8,521 nt of DNA from Chloroflexota bacterium (GTDB taxonomy: Bacteria > Chloroflexota > Dormibacteria > Dormibacterales > Dormibacteraceae): NCBI GenBank assembly GCA_005880345.1, contig VBGE01000120.1, positions 1 through 8,521 of the forward strand, written 5' to 3'. A program made the translations under genes and the position numbers. Below are positions 2-8,521 of this stretch, piece by piece (the stretch's first letter is position 1; every line of letters begins with the position of its first letter). Under the pieces are notes generated by a model that was not told where the DNA came from, did not search any database, and saw only the letters and a program-made list of their open reading frames with translations.

Positions 2-664
2 CGGATCCTTCAGCCGGTCGGCGCGCTGGCCGCGATCTCATCGTTTCTCGTTCCGCGCGGCGCGGCCGCCGCCCTGCTCGCCGCCGGCTGGCTGCTGGTC
101 TGCGCGCTCGCCGGCCTGGCCGGTCTGCTGCCTGCCGCCTCACTCGGCTTCCTGGCTGTCGGCGGCGCATGGCTCGTCGCCTATCGCGGCGCCCTTGCGC
201 TCGGCTACAGCCCACCTATCGTCGAGCTGACCGCGACCCATTTCCACTACGCCGGCTTCGCGGCCACCTTGATGTCGGCGCTCGCGTACAGCGTCCTGCG
301 CAGTCGCATCAGCGCCGCGGCCGGGCTGCTTGTCGTCATCGGCACGCCGCTGACGGCGGCAGGCATCGCGACCGGGACCGCAGCATTGACCGTGATCGGG
401 CCCATCCTGCTGGCCGCGGGCCTGCTCACCAACGCGGCGCTTACTGCCTTCCTCATCGCACCTCGCCAACCCAACCGTGCGCGCTGGCTGCTCATCGTGT
501 CGTCGCTCGCGGTGGTGGTCCCAATGCTGCTCGGCGTCGACTACGCCGCGGCGCGCGTTTTCCCGATTCCCTCACTCGACCTGCGGACGATGGCGCTGGT
601 CCACGGCGACCTCAACGCAGTCGCCTATGCGCTCATCGGCCTGGCCGGCTGGAGCCAGGCATGA
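2..664 (+). CDS. YndJ-like integral membrane protein, C-terminal part
   Basis: This is the last 220 residues of a protein whose start lies left of the window; the frame is open to the first bases. It is strongly hydrophobic, with several membrane segments rich in Ala, Leu, Val and Gly. The motif THFHYAGF (fragment residues 79-86) and a later VHGDLNA before the last helix are features I associate with the YndJ family, first named in Bacillus and of unknown function. The conserved histidines within membrane segments could bind metal or heme, but that is inference. It ends in TGA at 662-664, overlapping the ATG of the next gene by four bases (ATGA), so the two are very probably translated in a coupled way. 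The family call is from motif memory only; the membrane nature is certain. Confidence 0.75.
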   Translation, partial: RILQPVGALAAISSFLVPRGAAAALLAAGWLLVCALAGLAGLLPAASLGFLAVGGAWLVAYRGALALGYSPPIVELTATHFHYAGFAATLMSALAYSVLRSRISAAAGLLVVIGTPLTAAGIATGTAALTVIGPILLAAGLLTNAALTAFLIAPRQPNRARWLLIVSSLAVVVPMLLGVDYAAARVFPIPSLDLRTMALVHGDLNAVAYALIGLAGWSQA

Positions 665-1059
665 GCGACGAACCCATCGTGCTGCTTTTCGACGGCACTT
701 GAGGCGTTTGAACACGCATGGCGCGCTGGGTCCGCCGCCGCGCCGGGGCCGGCCGTGTGCAGGCCATCGCCAACCAGAAGGCCGGCGTGCTGGAGCGCTA
801 CCGGATCACGCGCGCCGAGGCGGACCGGGCCGCGTGGACGGTCGATGGGGAAGGACGCCGGCTCGAGGGCGCGGCGGCGATCAACAGAGTGCTGACCGAG
901 ATGCCAGGCATCTGGCCGGCGATCGCGTCGATCTATCGCATCCACCCGATTGCCGCGGTCGAGGAAGCTTTCTACCGCTGGTTTGCGCGGAGCCGCTCGC
1001 GATTCCAGCGCTGGGGCACTCGGCCGGAATGCGACGAGCCTGAGGCCGGCTGCGCGTGA
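661..1059 (+). CDS. DCC-family (DUF393) thiol-disulfide oxidoreductase-like selenoprotein with a U-x-x-U motif (two recoded TGA codons)
   Basis: Read through two TGA codons, this frame gives a 132-residue protein of normal DCC/DUF393 length and layout. Residues 6-19 read IVLLFDG-T-[TGA]-G-V-[TGA]-T-R. The family signature is a beta strand followed by D-G-x-C-x-x-C-x-R, so both catalytic cysteines (residues 14 and 17) are TGA. Downstream are the expected helix (MARWVRRR), a D-G-E-G turn with the EGAAAINRVL helix, and the closing segment AFYRWFARSRSRFQRWG, all typical of the family. The start ATG overlaps the upstream stop (ATGA), and GGAG at 651-654 is a well-placed ribosome binding site. The stop TGA (1057-1059) overlaps the GTG of the next gene. 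TGC is used for the other cysteines near the C terminus (PECDEP, GCA), and TGA ends neighbouring genes, so a changed genetic code is unlikely. Without recoding, only a 13-residue peptide or an internal-start fragment from ATG 718, lacking the active site, could be made. The likely role is a redox partner of the flanking membrane proteins. Other explanations are a pseudogene or a sequence error, but two independent hits on exactly the two cysteines make these improbable. Confidence 0.85.
700..711 (+). other. Paired recoding site: two in-frame TGA codons as predicted selenocysteine codons
   Basis: TGA at 700-702 and TGA at 709-711 are separated by GGC GTT (Gly-Val). They replace the two cysteine codons of the DCC family C-x-x-C motif. 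Each differs from a cysteine codon (TGC or TGT) only at the third base, as expected when Cys and Sec forms of one family interconvert. Confidence 0.8.
712..758 (+). promoter_or_regulatory. Candidate bacterial SECIS hairpin inside the DCC gene
   Basis: Directly after the second TGA, ACACG (712-716) can pair with CGTGT (754-758). Inside it GGCGCG (720-725) pairs perfectly with CGCGCC (739-744). The apical loop is 726-738 and contains GGGTC, reminiscent of the GGUC loop of the E. coli fdhF SECIS. The first loop G (728) is 16 bases past the second TGA and 25 past the first, so one hairpin could serve both within the spacing known for bacterial SECIS elements. The two stems are separated by a lopsided internal loop, and the region is so GC-rich that other folds exist (for example ATGGC 718-722 with GCCAT 763-767). 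The exact structure is therefore uncertain. Confidence 0.45.
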
Positions 1060-1757
1060 GTGACCTGCTCGCCGCGGAGCATCTCGGCGCCCTGGTCGTC
1101 ATCGCGGCGGTGATTTCCGTCCTGGTCGTCGCTGCGCGCCGCAACGCCGGCCCCTGGCTGAAGGTGCTCGCCTTGGTGCTCGCCCTCGACGAGGTGAGCT
1201 GGTGGGTCTACATGGCTTTCGGCGGCGGCGAGCCCGGCCAAAGGGCTCAGCCTCTGCCCCTGCAGCTGTGTGACGCCGCGATCCTCATCGCCGCCTTCGC
1301 GCTGTGGACCCGCCAACGGCTGCTGGCCGAGGTCACCTACTTCTGGGGGCTGGCCGGGACGGTCCAGGCCCTGCTCACGCCTGAGCTGCCGCAGCATTTT
1401 CCGACCTATCCGTACTTCCAGTACTACATCGCCCACGGAGGCGTCGTCGCCGTGGCGCTCATCCTGGTCATCGGCCTTCGACTGCAGCCGCGACGCTGGT
1501 CGGTGGCGTGGGTGGCCGGGCTGACGGTCGCATATGCCGGGTTGGTCGGTCTCGTCGACGCCGTCACCGGCGCGAACTACATGTTTCTACGCGGCAAGCC
1601 GGACGTGCCGACACTGCTCGACGACCTTGGCCCATGGCCGTGGTACATCCTGGCCGCATCCGGGGTCGGGACCGTGCTCTTCGCCCTCCTCGACGCACCG
1701 TTTCGGTGGCGTCGCGCCGGACGGCTACCGCAGGGGCGTGCCGAAGCGCTCCGCTGA
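1056..1757 (+). CDS. YwaF/TIGR02206 family integral membrane protein
   Basis: The 233-residue hydrophobic protein has about six or seven membrane segments. Family landmarks are all present in order: LPLQLCD (67-73), YFWGLAGTVQALLTPEL (95-111), FQYYIAHGG (121-129), NYMFLRGKP (174-182) and LGPWPWY (191-197). These are hallmarks of the TIGR02206/YwaF family, whose biochemical function is unknown. The length matches the family. The GTG start overlaps the DCC stop (GTGA), and no strong ribosome binding site is seen close by, so translation is probably coupled to the DCC gene. That would make expression of this protein depend on ribosomes getting through both TGA codons upstream, or on reinitiation. 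The 3' end overlaps the convergent nitroreductase by 33 bases. The conserved aromatic, His and Cys residues near membrane faces leave room for a redox or cofactor role, but nothing here proves it. Confidence 0.88.
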   Translation: MSDLLAAEHLGALVVIAAVISVLVVAARRNAGPWLKVLALVLALDEVSWWVYMAFGGGEPGQRAQPLPLQLCDAAILIAAFALWTRQRLLAEVTYFWGLAGTVQALLTPELPQHFPTYPYFQYYIAHGGVVAVALILVIGLRLQPRRWSVAWVAGLTVAYAGLVGLVDAVTGANYMFLRGKPDVPTLLDDLGPWPWYILAASGVGTVLFALLDAPFRWRRAGRLPQGRAEALR

Positions 1758-5213: not shown

Positions 5214-7061
5214 TCACGAAGGTGACCTTGTCGGAGCAGCATTGTTCAGGGTGATCTCATCCATGAACGGCGTGCCGAGGACCGGGGTCCGGGCCACGGT
5301 GCCGATGCCGTCGGTGAGGCTGCCGGCCACGCTGTGGAAGTTGGCGGTCGCGATGTCGTTCTGAGTCTCCGATCCGTCCCAGTTGACGTGCAGGTAGTTC
5401 TTGACGAAATCGGTCGTCCCGGCGCCCTGGTCGAGGATGTCCTGGCCAGACACCATCAGGTGCCCGCCGTTGTCGAGGTAGGCCGCCAGGCTTCGCTCGT
5501 AGGCGAGCAGCGGACCTGGATAGCTGATGCCGGTGAACCAGACGATGTTCTTGAACGCCTCCATGTACTTGAGAGGCAGGGCCGGATGCGCCGCTAGGTC
5601 CCACGTGTCATGGGCCATGCCGGCGCCGGTGAGAGCGGCGTCATAGAAGCTGCTGGTGTCTGGGTTGGCCGGACTGCCGTCCTCATCGACGAGCAGCGTG
5701 TCGACGGCGACCGCGATCGTAGTGATCGACGCGGATGCGCTGACCGTCGGGCTGCCTGCCGAGGTTGCCGTCACGGTTGATGTGCTGGACGTGCCGTCCG
5801 CGGCCGTGGCCGGAGCCGCCACCTTGACGCAGACGTCCTGCGTCGCACCCGCGGCCAGGTTGGCGGTGGCCGTGATCGAAGTGGTGCAGGTCGAGTCGAA
5901 GAAGCTGGTGGCAAAGGTGCCGCCAGACGACGTCAGGTTGTAGTGATCCGTCGTGAAGCCGAGGTTCTTGACCGTCTCGGTGTAGCTCTGCGTCGTGCCA
6001 GTGAGGGCGCCACCAGTCTGAGCGGACGGCGAGATGCTGACCGCGAAGGGCGGCGCGATGGGGGTGGTGGTCGGTGAGCCGCTCGGCGAGTCGTGCTGCG
6101 CGGATCGCACCTGGACCCCGTCGTTGACGATGGACTTGACGCTCGAGGACAAGCTGGGGTCGATCCTGACGCGGAGGTGGACCGCCGCATGGCCTCCGCC
6201 CACCAGCGGATTTCCAGTCGGCACGTTGAGGCCGCTCCACGTCACCAGGCCGTCTTCCAGGCGGCCGCCGTTGTCGGCGGACACAAACGAGGTGTGGGCG
6301 GGGATCGGATCAGTGATACGCACGCTGGTGGCCGGGCCGTTGCCGATGTTCTGCAGGCTCAGCGTGTAGTCGATGAAGCTCCCGGGGCCGACCGGCACGC
6401 CGGCGTCCACGGTCGAGAGAACGAGTGCCGGCGCCGGTGCCGACGTGTCCGTGAGCGACCACGCGCCGCGGCCATGGGTACCGCCGGCGAGCACGCGGTG
6501 GAACGTGTCGAGGTTCAGCTGCTCAACCGACACGATCGGAAGGTTTCTGCCGAGCGCGTACCAGTGCCCGCCGCCGTTGAACGAGACGAAGGGGCCGATG
6601 TCGGTGCCCGCGTAGATCGTGTCCGCGTAAGCCGGGTCGAGCACGAGCCAGTTGACCGGCGTGTCCGGCAGGTTGCTGGTCATGTTCTGGAAGGACTGGC
6701 CGCCGTCGGTGGTCTTGAAGATGTGTCCGGGACGGTTCGGCGTAGCGGCGTCGAACCCGTTGTAGGCGACATAAGCGTTGCGCCAGTTGCTCCGGTCGAC
6801 CGCGATGGAGCTGACCGGGCGCTGCGGCAGGCGCACGTCGCTGTGCGCGCCGTCCTGATTGCCGTTCTGGCCCGAGCTGCCGAGCCGGATCCAGGTCGGG
6901 TTGCTGCTGGTCTGCGCGTCCGGGCTCACCCAGAGGAATCCATCGTTGGAGCCGGCGTAGACGCCGGTGCCGCCGCCGACGCCGATGGCGGTCAGCGTGC
7001 AGTTGCGCGCGCCGTTCGGCGCGGGCCCGGTGCAGCCGCTCGTCAGGTCGGGGCTGATGGT
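5214..7061 (-). CDS. C-terminal part of the secreted BNR protein: last propeller blades, DUF11, Ig-like and amidotransferase-like domains
   Basis: True coding in this frame begins near TISPDLTSGCTGPAPNGAR at about 7061; the first usable start codon is a GTG at 6929, which is not a real gene start. Counting from that GTG, an Asp box KTTDGGQSF (72-80) and LVLDPAYADTIYAGTD close the propeller. Residues about 165-285 look like a DUF11/TIGR01451 domain (FIDYTLSLQNIGNGPATSVRI, then TDPIPAHTSF). Residues about 293-405 are an Ig-like beta sandwich (YTETVKNLGF, ATSAGSPTVSAS). Residues about 407-566 have the alternating helix and strand pattern of a class I glutamine-amidotransferase-like fold (TLLVDEDG, NIVWFTGISY, LAAYLDNGGHLMVSGQDI), without an obvious catalytic Cys. 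The frame ends at a TGA (5214-5216) that arose by a frame change; the natural tail lies in another frame to 5185. The protein is presumably extracellular and adhesive or polymer-binding. Confidence 0.8.
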   Translation of the reverse strand, partial: TISPDLTSGCTGPAPNGARNCTLTAIGVGGGTGVYAGSNDGFLWVSPDAQTSSNPTWIRLGSSGQNGNQDGAHSDVRLPQRPVSSIAVDRSNWRNAYVAYNGFDAATPNRPGHIFKTTDGGQSFQNMTSNLPDTPVNWLVLDPAYADTIYAGTDIGPFVSFNGGGHWYALGRNLPIVSVEQLNLDTFHRVLAGGTHGRGAWSLTDTSAPAPALVLSTVDAGVPVGPGSFIDYTLSLQNIGNGPATSVRITDPIPAHTSFVSADNGGRLEDGLVTWSGLNVPTGNPLVGGGHAAVHLRVRIDPSLSSSVKSIVNDGVQVRSAQHDSPSGSPTTTPIAPPFAVSISPSAQTGGALTGTTQSYTETVKNLGFTTDHYNLTSSGGTFATSFFDSTCTTSITATANLAAGATQDVCVKVAAPATAADGTSSTSTVTATSAGSPTVSASASITTIAVAVDTLLVDEDGSPANPDTSSFYDAALTGAGMAHDTWDLAAHPALPLKYMEAFKNIVWFTGISYPGPLLAYERSLAAYLDNGGHLMVSGQDILDQGAGTTDFVKNYLHVNWDGSETQNDIATANFHSVAGSLTDGIGTVARTPVLGTPFMDEITLNNAAPTRSPS

Positions 7062-7062
7062 C

Positions 7063-8521
7063 GCGGAAGGTACCGGTGAACAGCTGGTTGACGTTGCCAG
7101 GGTTGAGCACCAGGGGCATGTAGAACTCGGCGCGGTCGCCGAGGTTGATGCCGTTCAGGATGGGCTTCCAGGTGAAGAAGCTCGACCCGCCGTCCGTGAT
7201 GCGGTAGATCGAAGCCGGCGGTGCGAAGAACGTGCCGTACACGTACTGCCAGCCGGTTGGGTCGACCTGGACGTTGCCGCCGTCACCCGACGTGACGTCG
7301 AACCAGGTCGGCGATGCAGCCGCCTTGCGCAGGGTGCCGTTGTCCTGCGTGCCGCCCCAGAAGCGAGGGGTGCGGGTGGGGTTGGTGGAGATGGAGCTGA
7401 ACTGCGTGATCTGGAGGCCGTTCGAGCTCAGGTCCGGGTTGCCGTTCAGATCGATCCAGTGGTTCGAGAGCAGGTCGGTCTCGCCGGCCGAGCCCGGCAC
7501 GCGGCCGCCCTGATCGGGGCTGGACCAGACGCCGCCGTCGGAGCCGATCAGGACGTTCTTCGAGTTGTTGGGGTCGAACGCCAGGGCGTGGAAGTCGGGG
7601 TGCTGGTCGGCGCCCAGGTTCTTCCAGTGCACGCCGCCGTCGTCCGAGCGGTAGACGCCACCGGATGGCGGCGAGAGCGTGTAACCGAAGGAGCCGGCGG
7701 CGAAGACGACGTTCGGGTTCGTCGGGTCCGTTTCGATGACGTTGTCGTAAGTGCACTGCGTGCCGCAGTAGCCGAGCACGCTGTCGATGCCGCTCCCAAG
7801 GCCGGGCAGAGTCCACGTCGCGCCGCCGTCAGTCGACTTGAAGACGCGGGAGCCGCGGTGGGTGGTCGTTCCGGCGTTGAACCAGTCGAAACCGGCGTAG
7901 AGGACAGGCGACTGGCCGGCGGGATGCGAGATGGCGAGGTTGAAGCGCGTCGGGTTCTGGACGAAGTCCGGAGCAGGGGTCAGCGGCAGCGAGTGGGAGA
8001 TGTTGTTCCAGGTCGCCCCGCCGTCGGTGCTCTTGTAGATCGCGTCGCCCAGGAAGGACGCGTACAGGACGTTCGGGCTCAGCGGGTCCATGCGAATGTC
8101 GGTGGCACCCTCAGACATGGCGCCGTTGGGGAGCGTGGTCGCGCCCTTCAGGAGCGTCCAGGTAACCCCGCCGTCGGTGGATTGCCAGATGCCGTAGGCA
8201 GAGTGGACAGGCGGCGTCGTGCGGTGGGCGCCACCTCGACCGCGGAGGACGGTCGCATACAGGTGGTTGGCGTTGGCCGGGTCGACGGCGAGGCGCGAGA
8301 TGGAGACGCCGATGAAGAAGTCGCCTGACACGTGCGCCCACGTCGTGCCGCCGTCGGTCGACTTCAGGATGCCGTTGCCGAAGTAGCTGTCGCCCGACAG
8401 CGCACCCTCTCCGGTGCCGTCGTAGACGACCGTCGGGCTGGAAGGCGCGTAGGCGAGAGCCCCGCTCGAGAGCGACGGCAGGTTGTCGGTGCGGGCCACC
8501 CAGACTCCGGTCCCAGGGTCC
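7063..8521 (-). CDS. BNR/Asp-box beta-propeller part of the secreted protein (5' partial, frameshifted at its end)
   Basis: The frame is open to the right edge (DPGTGVWVARTDNLPSL at the border), so the signal peptide and start are outside; a GTG at 8499 is only an internal valine. Asp-box motifs S-x-D-x-G-x-x-W recur: KSTDGGTTW, QSTDGGVTW, KSTDGGATW (twice) and RSDDGGVHW, about 50 to 65 residues apart, with a degenerate one at YRITDGGSSFFTW. Between them are strands such as LAVDPANANHLYATV and ALAFDPNNSKNVLIGSDGGVW. This is the layout of sialidase-like or VPS10/sortilin-like propellers, often annotated as exo-alpha-sialidase or glycosyl hydrolase. Asp boxes mark the fold only; no sialidase Arg triad can be confirmed, so catalytic activity should not be assumed. 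The reading frame stays open to 6523, but after TGTFR at about 7063 it is nonsense rich in Arg and Gln. Confidence 0.85.

What the first reader, a model, noticed from the sequence alone, without database searches (positions are those of the whole stretch)
661..1059. DCC-family protein whose two catalytic cysteines are both TGA: a probable U-x-x-U selenoprotein
Seen: in one frame from ATG 661 to the stop at 1057, the only interruptions are TGA at 700 and TGA at 709. They fall exactly at the two Cys of the DCC motif D-G-x-C-x-x-C. The sequence on both sides is a textbook DCC protein, with gene overlaps (ATGA and GTGA) intact at both ends. Known: Sec commonly replaces catalytic Cys in thioredoxin-like redox motifs, and a double-Sec U-x-x-U motif with a diselenide is known in the SelL family. 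Inference: this gene makes a diselenide-type DCC oxidoreductase. I am not aware of a described U-x-x-U DCC family but cannot search. Two random mutations or errors hitting only these two codons, both giving TGA, is very unlikely.
Basis: partly seen in the sequence, partly recalled or inferred. Interest (0 to 1): 0.95.

Follow-up and report, generated by a model that had tools for sequence, protein, structure and literature searches.

The report
Double-selenocysteine DCC redox protein
A small redox-enzyme gene of an uncultured bacterium carries the stop codon UGA at both of its catalytic cysteine positions, as do many relatives in its phylum, and both codons are predicted to be read as selenocysteine, which would make it a two-selenium member of an enzyme family that is not on the latest published selenoprotein list that we read.

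Summary
Confirmed and strengthened. Window 661-1059 is a DCC protein (PF04134, 65.6 bits) whose only in-frame stops before its end are TGA 700 and TGA 709, at the two motif cysteines. Of 48 distinct homologous loci read at codon level, 20 are UxxU, 5 UxxC, 8 CxxU and 15 CxxC. The genome (63% complete MAG) holds tRNA-Sec and a UGA-containing selD; selA and selB were not found in it, but are over cut-off in 13 and 12 of 16 genus relatives. Codons 21-34, just after the UGAs, change synonymously at 0.12 of expectation in 17 U14 loci, against 0.81-0.92 further downstream and 1.05 in 8 CxxC loci: an RNA signal that goes with the first UGA. A stem-loop with GGUC starts 21 nt from the second UGA and 30 nt from the first (E. 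coli fdhF: 22), so one SECIS likely serves both. The only UCA tRNA seen in a 94% complete kin genome is tRNA-Sec. DCC is absent from a May 2026 table of prokaryotic selenoproteins. Sec insertion and a diselenide are inferred, not measured; the exact hairpin pairing is uncertain.

The parts
661..1059 (+). DCC-family (PF04134) gene, 132 residues if both UGAs are read through; U14-G-V-U17
700..702 (+). first in-frame UGA (position 14, first motif Cys); preceded by ACT in 17 of 17 close U14 loci
709..711 (+). second in-frame UGA (position 17, second motif Cys)
720..744 (+). candidate bSECIS stem-loop, apical loop GUCCG; GGUC at 729-732; loop starts 27 nt after the first UGA and 18 nt after the second; pairing inferred, one C-C mismatch in this copy
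721..762 (+). codons 21-34, under synonymous constraint (observed/expected 0.12 in 17 U14 loci); contains the stem-loop and a CCGGCCGTGTG that is invariant in 19 of 19 U14 loci
2..664 (+). YndJ-like membrane protein (PF14158), open at the window's edge, overlaps by ATGA
   Evidence: upstream in 7 of 14 genus loci
1056..1757 (+). TMEM164-related membrane acyltransferase (PF14808, TIGR02206), overlaps by GTGA
   Evidence: downstream in 14 of 14 genus loci

Best explanation
Window 661-1059 encodes a DCC-family oxidoreductase whose two motif cysteine codons are both UGA, and both are likely read as selenocysteine by the standard bacterial SelB route, giving a predicted U-G-V-U active site. Shown: the codons and their conservation, selC and selD in the genome, selA and selB in most of the genus, and the RNA-level constraint after the UGAs. 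Inferred: SelB with Sec-tRNA(Sec) binds one hairpin at about 720-744 that is in reach of both UGAs (18 and 27 nt); 4 of 5 relatives with only the first UGA keep that hairpin and 8 of 8 with only the second keep one around the same GGUC. Inferred: the two selenols lie at the start of helix 1 after strand 1 of a thioredoxin-like fold and cycle between diselenol and diselenide while exchanging with protein or small thiols; in this genus the partner may be the overlapping TMEM164-like membrane acyltransferase (weak, by adjacency only).
For: Codon states in 48 distinct loci: 20 UxxU, 5 UxxC, 8 CxxU, 15 CxxC; other in-frame stops lie only at or outside the gene ends. UxxU occurs in families f1, f3, f41, f83, f52 and f28 of the phylum. 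Own genome: tRNA-Sec 68.3 bits (gathering 47), ARAGORN anticodon tca; selD 340 bits with its own UGA. Of 16 genus relatives, over cut-off: selA 13, selB 12, selD 12; tRNA-Sec at 68-73 bits in 13. UGA-DCC genomes with selA over cut-off 26 of 29, Cys-only DCC genomes 6 of 21 (not corrected for kinship). Synonymous change over codons 21-34 is 0.12 of expected in 17 U14 loci, lowest of 68 sliding windows, 0 of 20,000 random column sets as low; 1.05 in 8 CxxC loci. Fixed-register hairpin at or below -7.5 kcal/mol in 32 of 33 UGA loci and 6 of 15 CxxC; at most 10 of 200 synonymous shuffles as stable in 17 of 33 (UxxU 13 of 20, UxxC 3 of 5, CxxU 1 of 8) and in 1 of 15 CxxC. GGUC at nt 21 from the second UGA, 22 in E. 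coli fdhF. In kin genome G005 the 64 tRNA places and the tRNA-Sec place were scanned with ARAGORN: the only tca anticodon is tRNA-Sec, both Cys tRNAs are gca (one partial place was not called). Model: strand 6-10, helix 15-27.
Against: selA and selB (one search found only an EF-Tu-like protein) were not found in this 63% complete MAG; kin G008 (95% complete) has the UGA gene, selC and selD, but no selA or selB over cut-off. In a free search the hairpin energy is no better than in synonymous shuffles, and the window's own copy is unremarkable even in the fixed register (58 of 200) and has a C-C mismatch; its 72-nt region folds no better than dinucleotide shuffles (z 1.26). L022 and L147 lack a convincing hairpin. 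In the 5 CxxU loci tested the synonymous ratio over codons 21-34 is 0.52, no lower than in another stretch of the same genes (0.52). RNAalifold chose a different fold without covariation support. No Rfam SECIS family matches the window or the other UGA loci tried, though fdhF does match. The invariant CCGGCCGTGTG is outside the simple hairpin and unexplained. No protein evidence exists; the diselenide is untested.
Confidence: 0.87

Rival explanations
1. UGA is read as cysteine (or another residue) by a special tRNA rather than as selenocysteine, so the protein is an ordinary C-x-x-C DCC enzyme.
For: The positions are cysteines in 15 of 48 loci; selA and selB were not found in this MAG.
Against: In G005 (94% complete) the only tRNA with anticodon tca is tRNA-Sec and the two Cys tRNAs found are gca. 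UGA ends genes here (YndJ, DCC itself, TMEM164). Sec genes are present in genome and genus. A reassigned codon would not need the RNA constraint, which is absent in CxxC relatives.
Confidence: 0.05
2. The upstream part is dead and the product is a 113-residue protein started at ATG 718, without the motif, as gene callers have it.
For: 111 of 120 listed database relatives are cut at MARW.
Against: The D-G and the strand before the UGAs are kept, as is the ATGA overlap here; Met20 is TTG or CTG in 4 of 17 close relatives; the two motif columns hold only TGA, TGC or TGT in the 48 loci; the tree shows repeated exchange, not decay.
Confidence: 0.04
3. Only one of the two UGAs is decoded as Sec efficiently; the other mostly terminates or is misread, so UxxU is a poorly expressed or selenium-gated state.
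For: Single-UGA relatives exist for each site (5 UxxC, 8 CxxU); the second UGA has an fdhF-like distance to GGUC, the first is 9 nt further.
Against: UxxU is the commonest UGA state (20 of 33) and occurs in six families of the phylum; 4 of 5 UxxC relatives have the far site alone with the same hairpin.
Confidence: 0.15

Closest known systems
DCC / YuxK predicted thiol-disulfide oxidoreductases (PF04134, DUF393)
   Same: Profile match over nearly the whole protein, D-G-x-[C]-x-x-[C] at the same columns, close CxxC relatives
   Different: Both cysteines are UGA codons; codons 21-34 carry an RNA-level constraint not seen in 8 CxxC members
Prx-like thiol:disulfide oxidoreductase with UxxC/UxxU (PF00578); SelL is recalled as of this kind
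   Same: Double Sec in a U-x-x-U motif (Table 1 of PMC13188914; passage of PMC2398784)
   Different: No PF00578 match here; another Pfam family
Metal-binding protein NF041115 and FmdB family (UxxU, 2 Sec)
   Same: Two Sec spaced U-x-x-U (Table 1 of PMC13188914)
   Different: No NCBIfam family matched this protein at E 0.01
E. coli fdhF UGA140 and its SECIS
   Same: GGUC starts at nt 22 from UGA; here at nt 21 from the second UGA
   Different: Stem sequence differs; fdhF matches Rfam SECIS_2, the loci here match no SECIS family; here one hairpin would serve two UGAs

Membership tests
Bacterial selenoprotein | In-frame UGA aligned with Cys of homologs, good homology on both sides | tested here: met
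Bacterial selenoprotein | Sec machinery in the organism | tested here: inconclusive
   selC and selD in the own genome; selA, selB not found in the 63% complete MAG but over cut-off in 13 and 12 of 16 genus relatives. Controls over cut-off: selA 1, selB 2, selD 2, tRNA-Sec 5 of 14 genomes
Bacterial selenoprotein | bSECIS model: loop 3-9 nt, G in first two loop positions, stem 4-16 bp, 16-37 nt from UGA, energy at or below -7.5 (PMC13188914 section 5) | tested here: met
   loop GUCCG, 27 and 18 nt, -16.5 kcal/mol, 11 pairs; but easy to meet in this GC-rich gene (6 of 15 CxxC loci also pass the energy limit)
Bacterial selenoprotein | RNA element under selection apart from the protein | tested here: met
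   for loci with UGA at position 14
Bacterial selenoprotein | Se in the protein | not testable with these tools
   -
DCC1-like (PF04134) | Profile score over the curated cut-off | tested here: met
   65.6 bits against 27.8
DCC1-like (PF04134) | Thioredoxin-like fold | tested here: inconclusive
Prx-like / SelL UxxU selenoproteins | PF00578 domain | tested here: not met
   only PF04134 at E 0.001

The most novel reading that the evidence does not exclude
DCC is a new selenoprotein family in which a single SECIS stands within reach of two UGAs 9 nt apart, so that one-base changes at either codon have switched the active site among CxxC, UxxC, CxxU and UxxU about 11 times on our tree: a natural two-site selenium switch with a diselenide end state.
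Probability: 0.57. Interest if true: 0.77.

Novelty: new variant of a known kind. Interest (0 to 1): 0.7.

Why it matters
Replacing both catalytic cysteines by selenocysteine means recoding two stop codons within twelve bases, so it should be worth something to the cell; this family offers all four combinations in close relatives, most with a hairpin at the same place, so the gain from one or two seleniums and the reach of one SECIS can be compared directly. It also explains why the databases hold many relatives as 113-residue proteins that lack their active site.

Tried and rejected
A free hairpin search against synonymous shuffles gave no excess, so hairpin stability alone is not evidence; the fixed-register test and the synonymous-site test were done after it. 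RNAalifold on 19 U14 loci was not used as the structure: too little variation. Pair counts on two two-sequence alignments show one double change each (C-G/U-A), too few for the controls to mean anything (266 and 281 of 500 shuffles as high). Rfam: no SECIS match for the window or for seven UGA loci, one of them the window's own; only chance-level other matches. PDB sequence search with the 69-sequence profile: no match at E 0.1. Plasmids: no match. Neighbours outside the genus: 20 proteins of 9 loci show no partner common to them, though an HD_5 domain gene lies upstream in two (L014, L144). Literature: searches found 0 papers; the listings, and the 10 of 416 shown, name no DCC selenoprotein. 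Seen of papers: PMC13188914 section 5, parts 1 and 2 of 3 of section 7, and passages; PMC9312934, PMC2398784, PMC4602095 passages only.

Full report
What is there. The frame from ATG 661 has stops only at TGA 700, TGA 709 and TGA 1057. Read with C at the two UGAs it is a DCC1-like protein, PF04134, 65.6 bits against a cut-off of 27.8. The UGAs replace both cysteines of the motif. The gene overlaps a YndJ-like gene upstream (ATGA) and a TMEM164-related acyltransferase gene downstream (GTGA). The window lies in a 1.95 Mb, 411-contig, 63% complete MAG; seven of the eight named public loci that resemble it are titled Chloroflexi bacterium.

Replication. A search of 151 genomes (its own and 150 relatives) found the gene in 50. 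Thirty loci from it and eight from the named collection were read at codon level; five of these repeat others and one (L037) lacks the motif. Seventeen further regions were read later, one of them a repeat; they cover the other matches of the class and phylum searches (45 of 110 and 118 of 400 genomes) that listed in-frame TGAs, save a contig-end fragment in G004, and four listed without; most Cys-type matches were not read. In 48 distinct loci: UxxU 20, UxxC 5, CxxU 8, CxxC 15. Other in-frame stops lie only at or outside the gene ends. UxxU is in the window's family and class and in families f41, f83, f52 and f28 of the phylum. One genome, G021, has a CxxC and a UxxU copy. Of 437 related database proteins, 120 are listed and 111 of these start MARW, at Met20, just behind the second UGA: the same cut in many data sets, although I did not see their DNA.

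Tree. On 48 rows the four states need at least 11 changes (shuffled mean 23.5); 16 of 45 inner branches are open, the bootstrap had not settled, and starred branches force only 2 changes for UxxU. Sec and Cys have been exchanged repeatedly; the direction is not resolved.

Machinery. Own genome: tRNA-Sec 68.3 bits with anticodon tca; selD 340 bits with a UGA at its own Sec site. No selA; the only match to a kin SelB is EF-Tu-like. Of 16 genus relatives, over cut-off: selA 13, selB 12, selD 12; tRNA-Sec at 68-73 bits in 13. Of 14 control genomes the families were over cut-off in 1 (selA), 2 (selB), 2 (selD) and 5 (tRNA-Sec). Among the 50 genomes, selA is over cut-off in 26 of 29 with a UGA gene and 6 of 21 with Cys only; 16 of the 21 were classed by the absence of stops, G004 by its fragment, and kinship is not corrected. 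The three UGA genomes without it (G000, G002, G008) have selC and selD. In G005 (94% complete), the 64 tRNA places and the tRNA-Sec place were scanned with ARAGORN: only tRNA-Sec has anticodon tca (one partial place was not called). That argues against a tRNA-Cys(UCA).

The RNA element. In 17 close U14 loci (13 UxxU, 4 UxxC), synonymous differences in codons 21-34 (window 721-762) are 116 of 1563 pairs, 0.12 of expectation; other stretches give 0.72 before the UGAs, 0.56 for the two codons between them, 0.99 for codons 18-20 and 0.81-0.92 further on. It is the lowest of 68 sliding windows, and 0 of 20,000 random column sets are as low. UxxU alone gives 0.11, UxxC 0.15, 8 CxxC loci 1.05 (80 of 125 pairs). 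Five CxxU loci give 0.52, but another stretch of theirs gives 0.52 too, so for CxxU this test shows nothing. The rows share one history along the gene, so the contrast within it is not kinship. It is the strongest evidence here that the UGAs are read by an RNA signal.

Which structure. A hairpin with its loop starting at nt 30-32 from the first UGA is at or below -7.5 kcal/mol in 32 of 33 UGA loci and 6 of 15 CxxC loci; at most 10 of 200 synonymous shuffles are as stable in 17 of 33 (UxxU 13 of 20, UxxC 3 of 5, CxxU 1 of 8) and 1 of 15. L145 and L146 show unbroken stems of 7 and 8 pairs around GGU. The CxxU clade has Q-R-H for R-R-R yet keeps a stem with loop GGUC in 8 of 8. GGUC starts at nt 21 from the second UGA and 30 from the first; in E. 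coli fdhF, at 22. Against: a free search gives no excess of stability, the window's own hairpin is ordinary (58 of 200), L022 and L147 fit poorly, RNAalifold prefers another fold, and an invariant CCGGCCGTGTG (19 of 19) lies outside. So an RNA element is well supported, its exact pairing is not. Four of 5 UxxC loci and all 8 CxxU loci keep a hairpin at this place with one UGA each; I infer that one element serves both in UxxU.

Protein. The model (pLDDT 77, pTM 0.71) has strand 6-10 then helix 15-27, which places U14 and U17 at the start of helix 1; matches are largely thioredoxin and GST folds but weak. A diselenide is inference from established thioredoxin chemistry. TMEM164-like genes follow directly in 14 of 14 genus loci and YndJ precedes in 7 of 14; neither was found in the 34 loci outside the genus, whose stretches are short, so the coupling looks genus-specific and says little about the family's basic function.

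Known or not. Table 1 of PMC13188914 (May 2026; 119 families or subfamilies by its own count), read in full, has UxxU in Prx-like PF00578, NF041115 and FmdB proteins, but no DCC, PF04134 or DUF393. Searches for DCC with selenoprotein or selenocysteine terms found no paper. Within the held library I found no report of this family; most subscription papers are not in it. SelL as UxxU precedent is recalled; only names it as Prx-like.

Odds. On recheck the probability of the novel case was lowered from 0.60 to 0.57, because the synonymous test says nothing for CxxU and only 1 of 8 CxxU hairpins stands out from shuffles; the main confidence, which concerns the window's UxxU gene, is unchanged.

Noticed in passing
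window 5214-8520, minus strand: A long repeat protein (sialidase/sortilin-like by eye, no family search made) is split between two overlapping frames near 6930-7080: a frameshift or an assembly error.
   Followed up: no
L187 5168-7249 (G005 contig C44): An array of 19 tRNA genes of many isotypes in about 2 kb, many with low tRNA scores, as in mobile or phage tRNA arrays.
   Followed up: no
L135 1083-1994 (G000 contig C407): selD of the window's genome is itself a UGA-containing gene (SHGAGUACK).
   Followed up: yes
A4 columns 50-60 (window 749-759): CCGGCCGTGTG is invariant in 19 of 19 U14 loci, including two with under 50% protein identity to the window, and includes a CGT arginine codon; not explained by the simple hairpin.
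   Followed up: partly
L138 and L019 (genome G021): One genome holds both a UxxU and a CxxC DCC gene; the UxxU copy faces a gene with a weak, sub-cut-off HTTM match.
   Followed up: no
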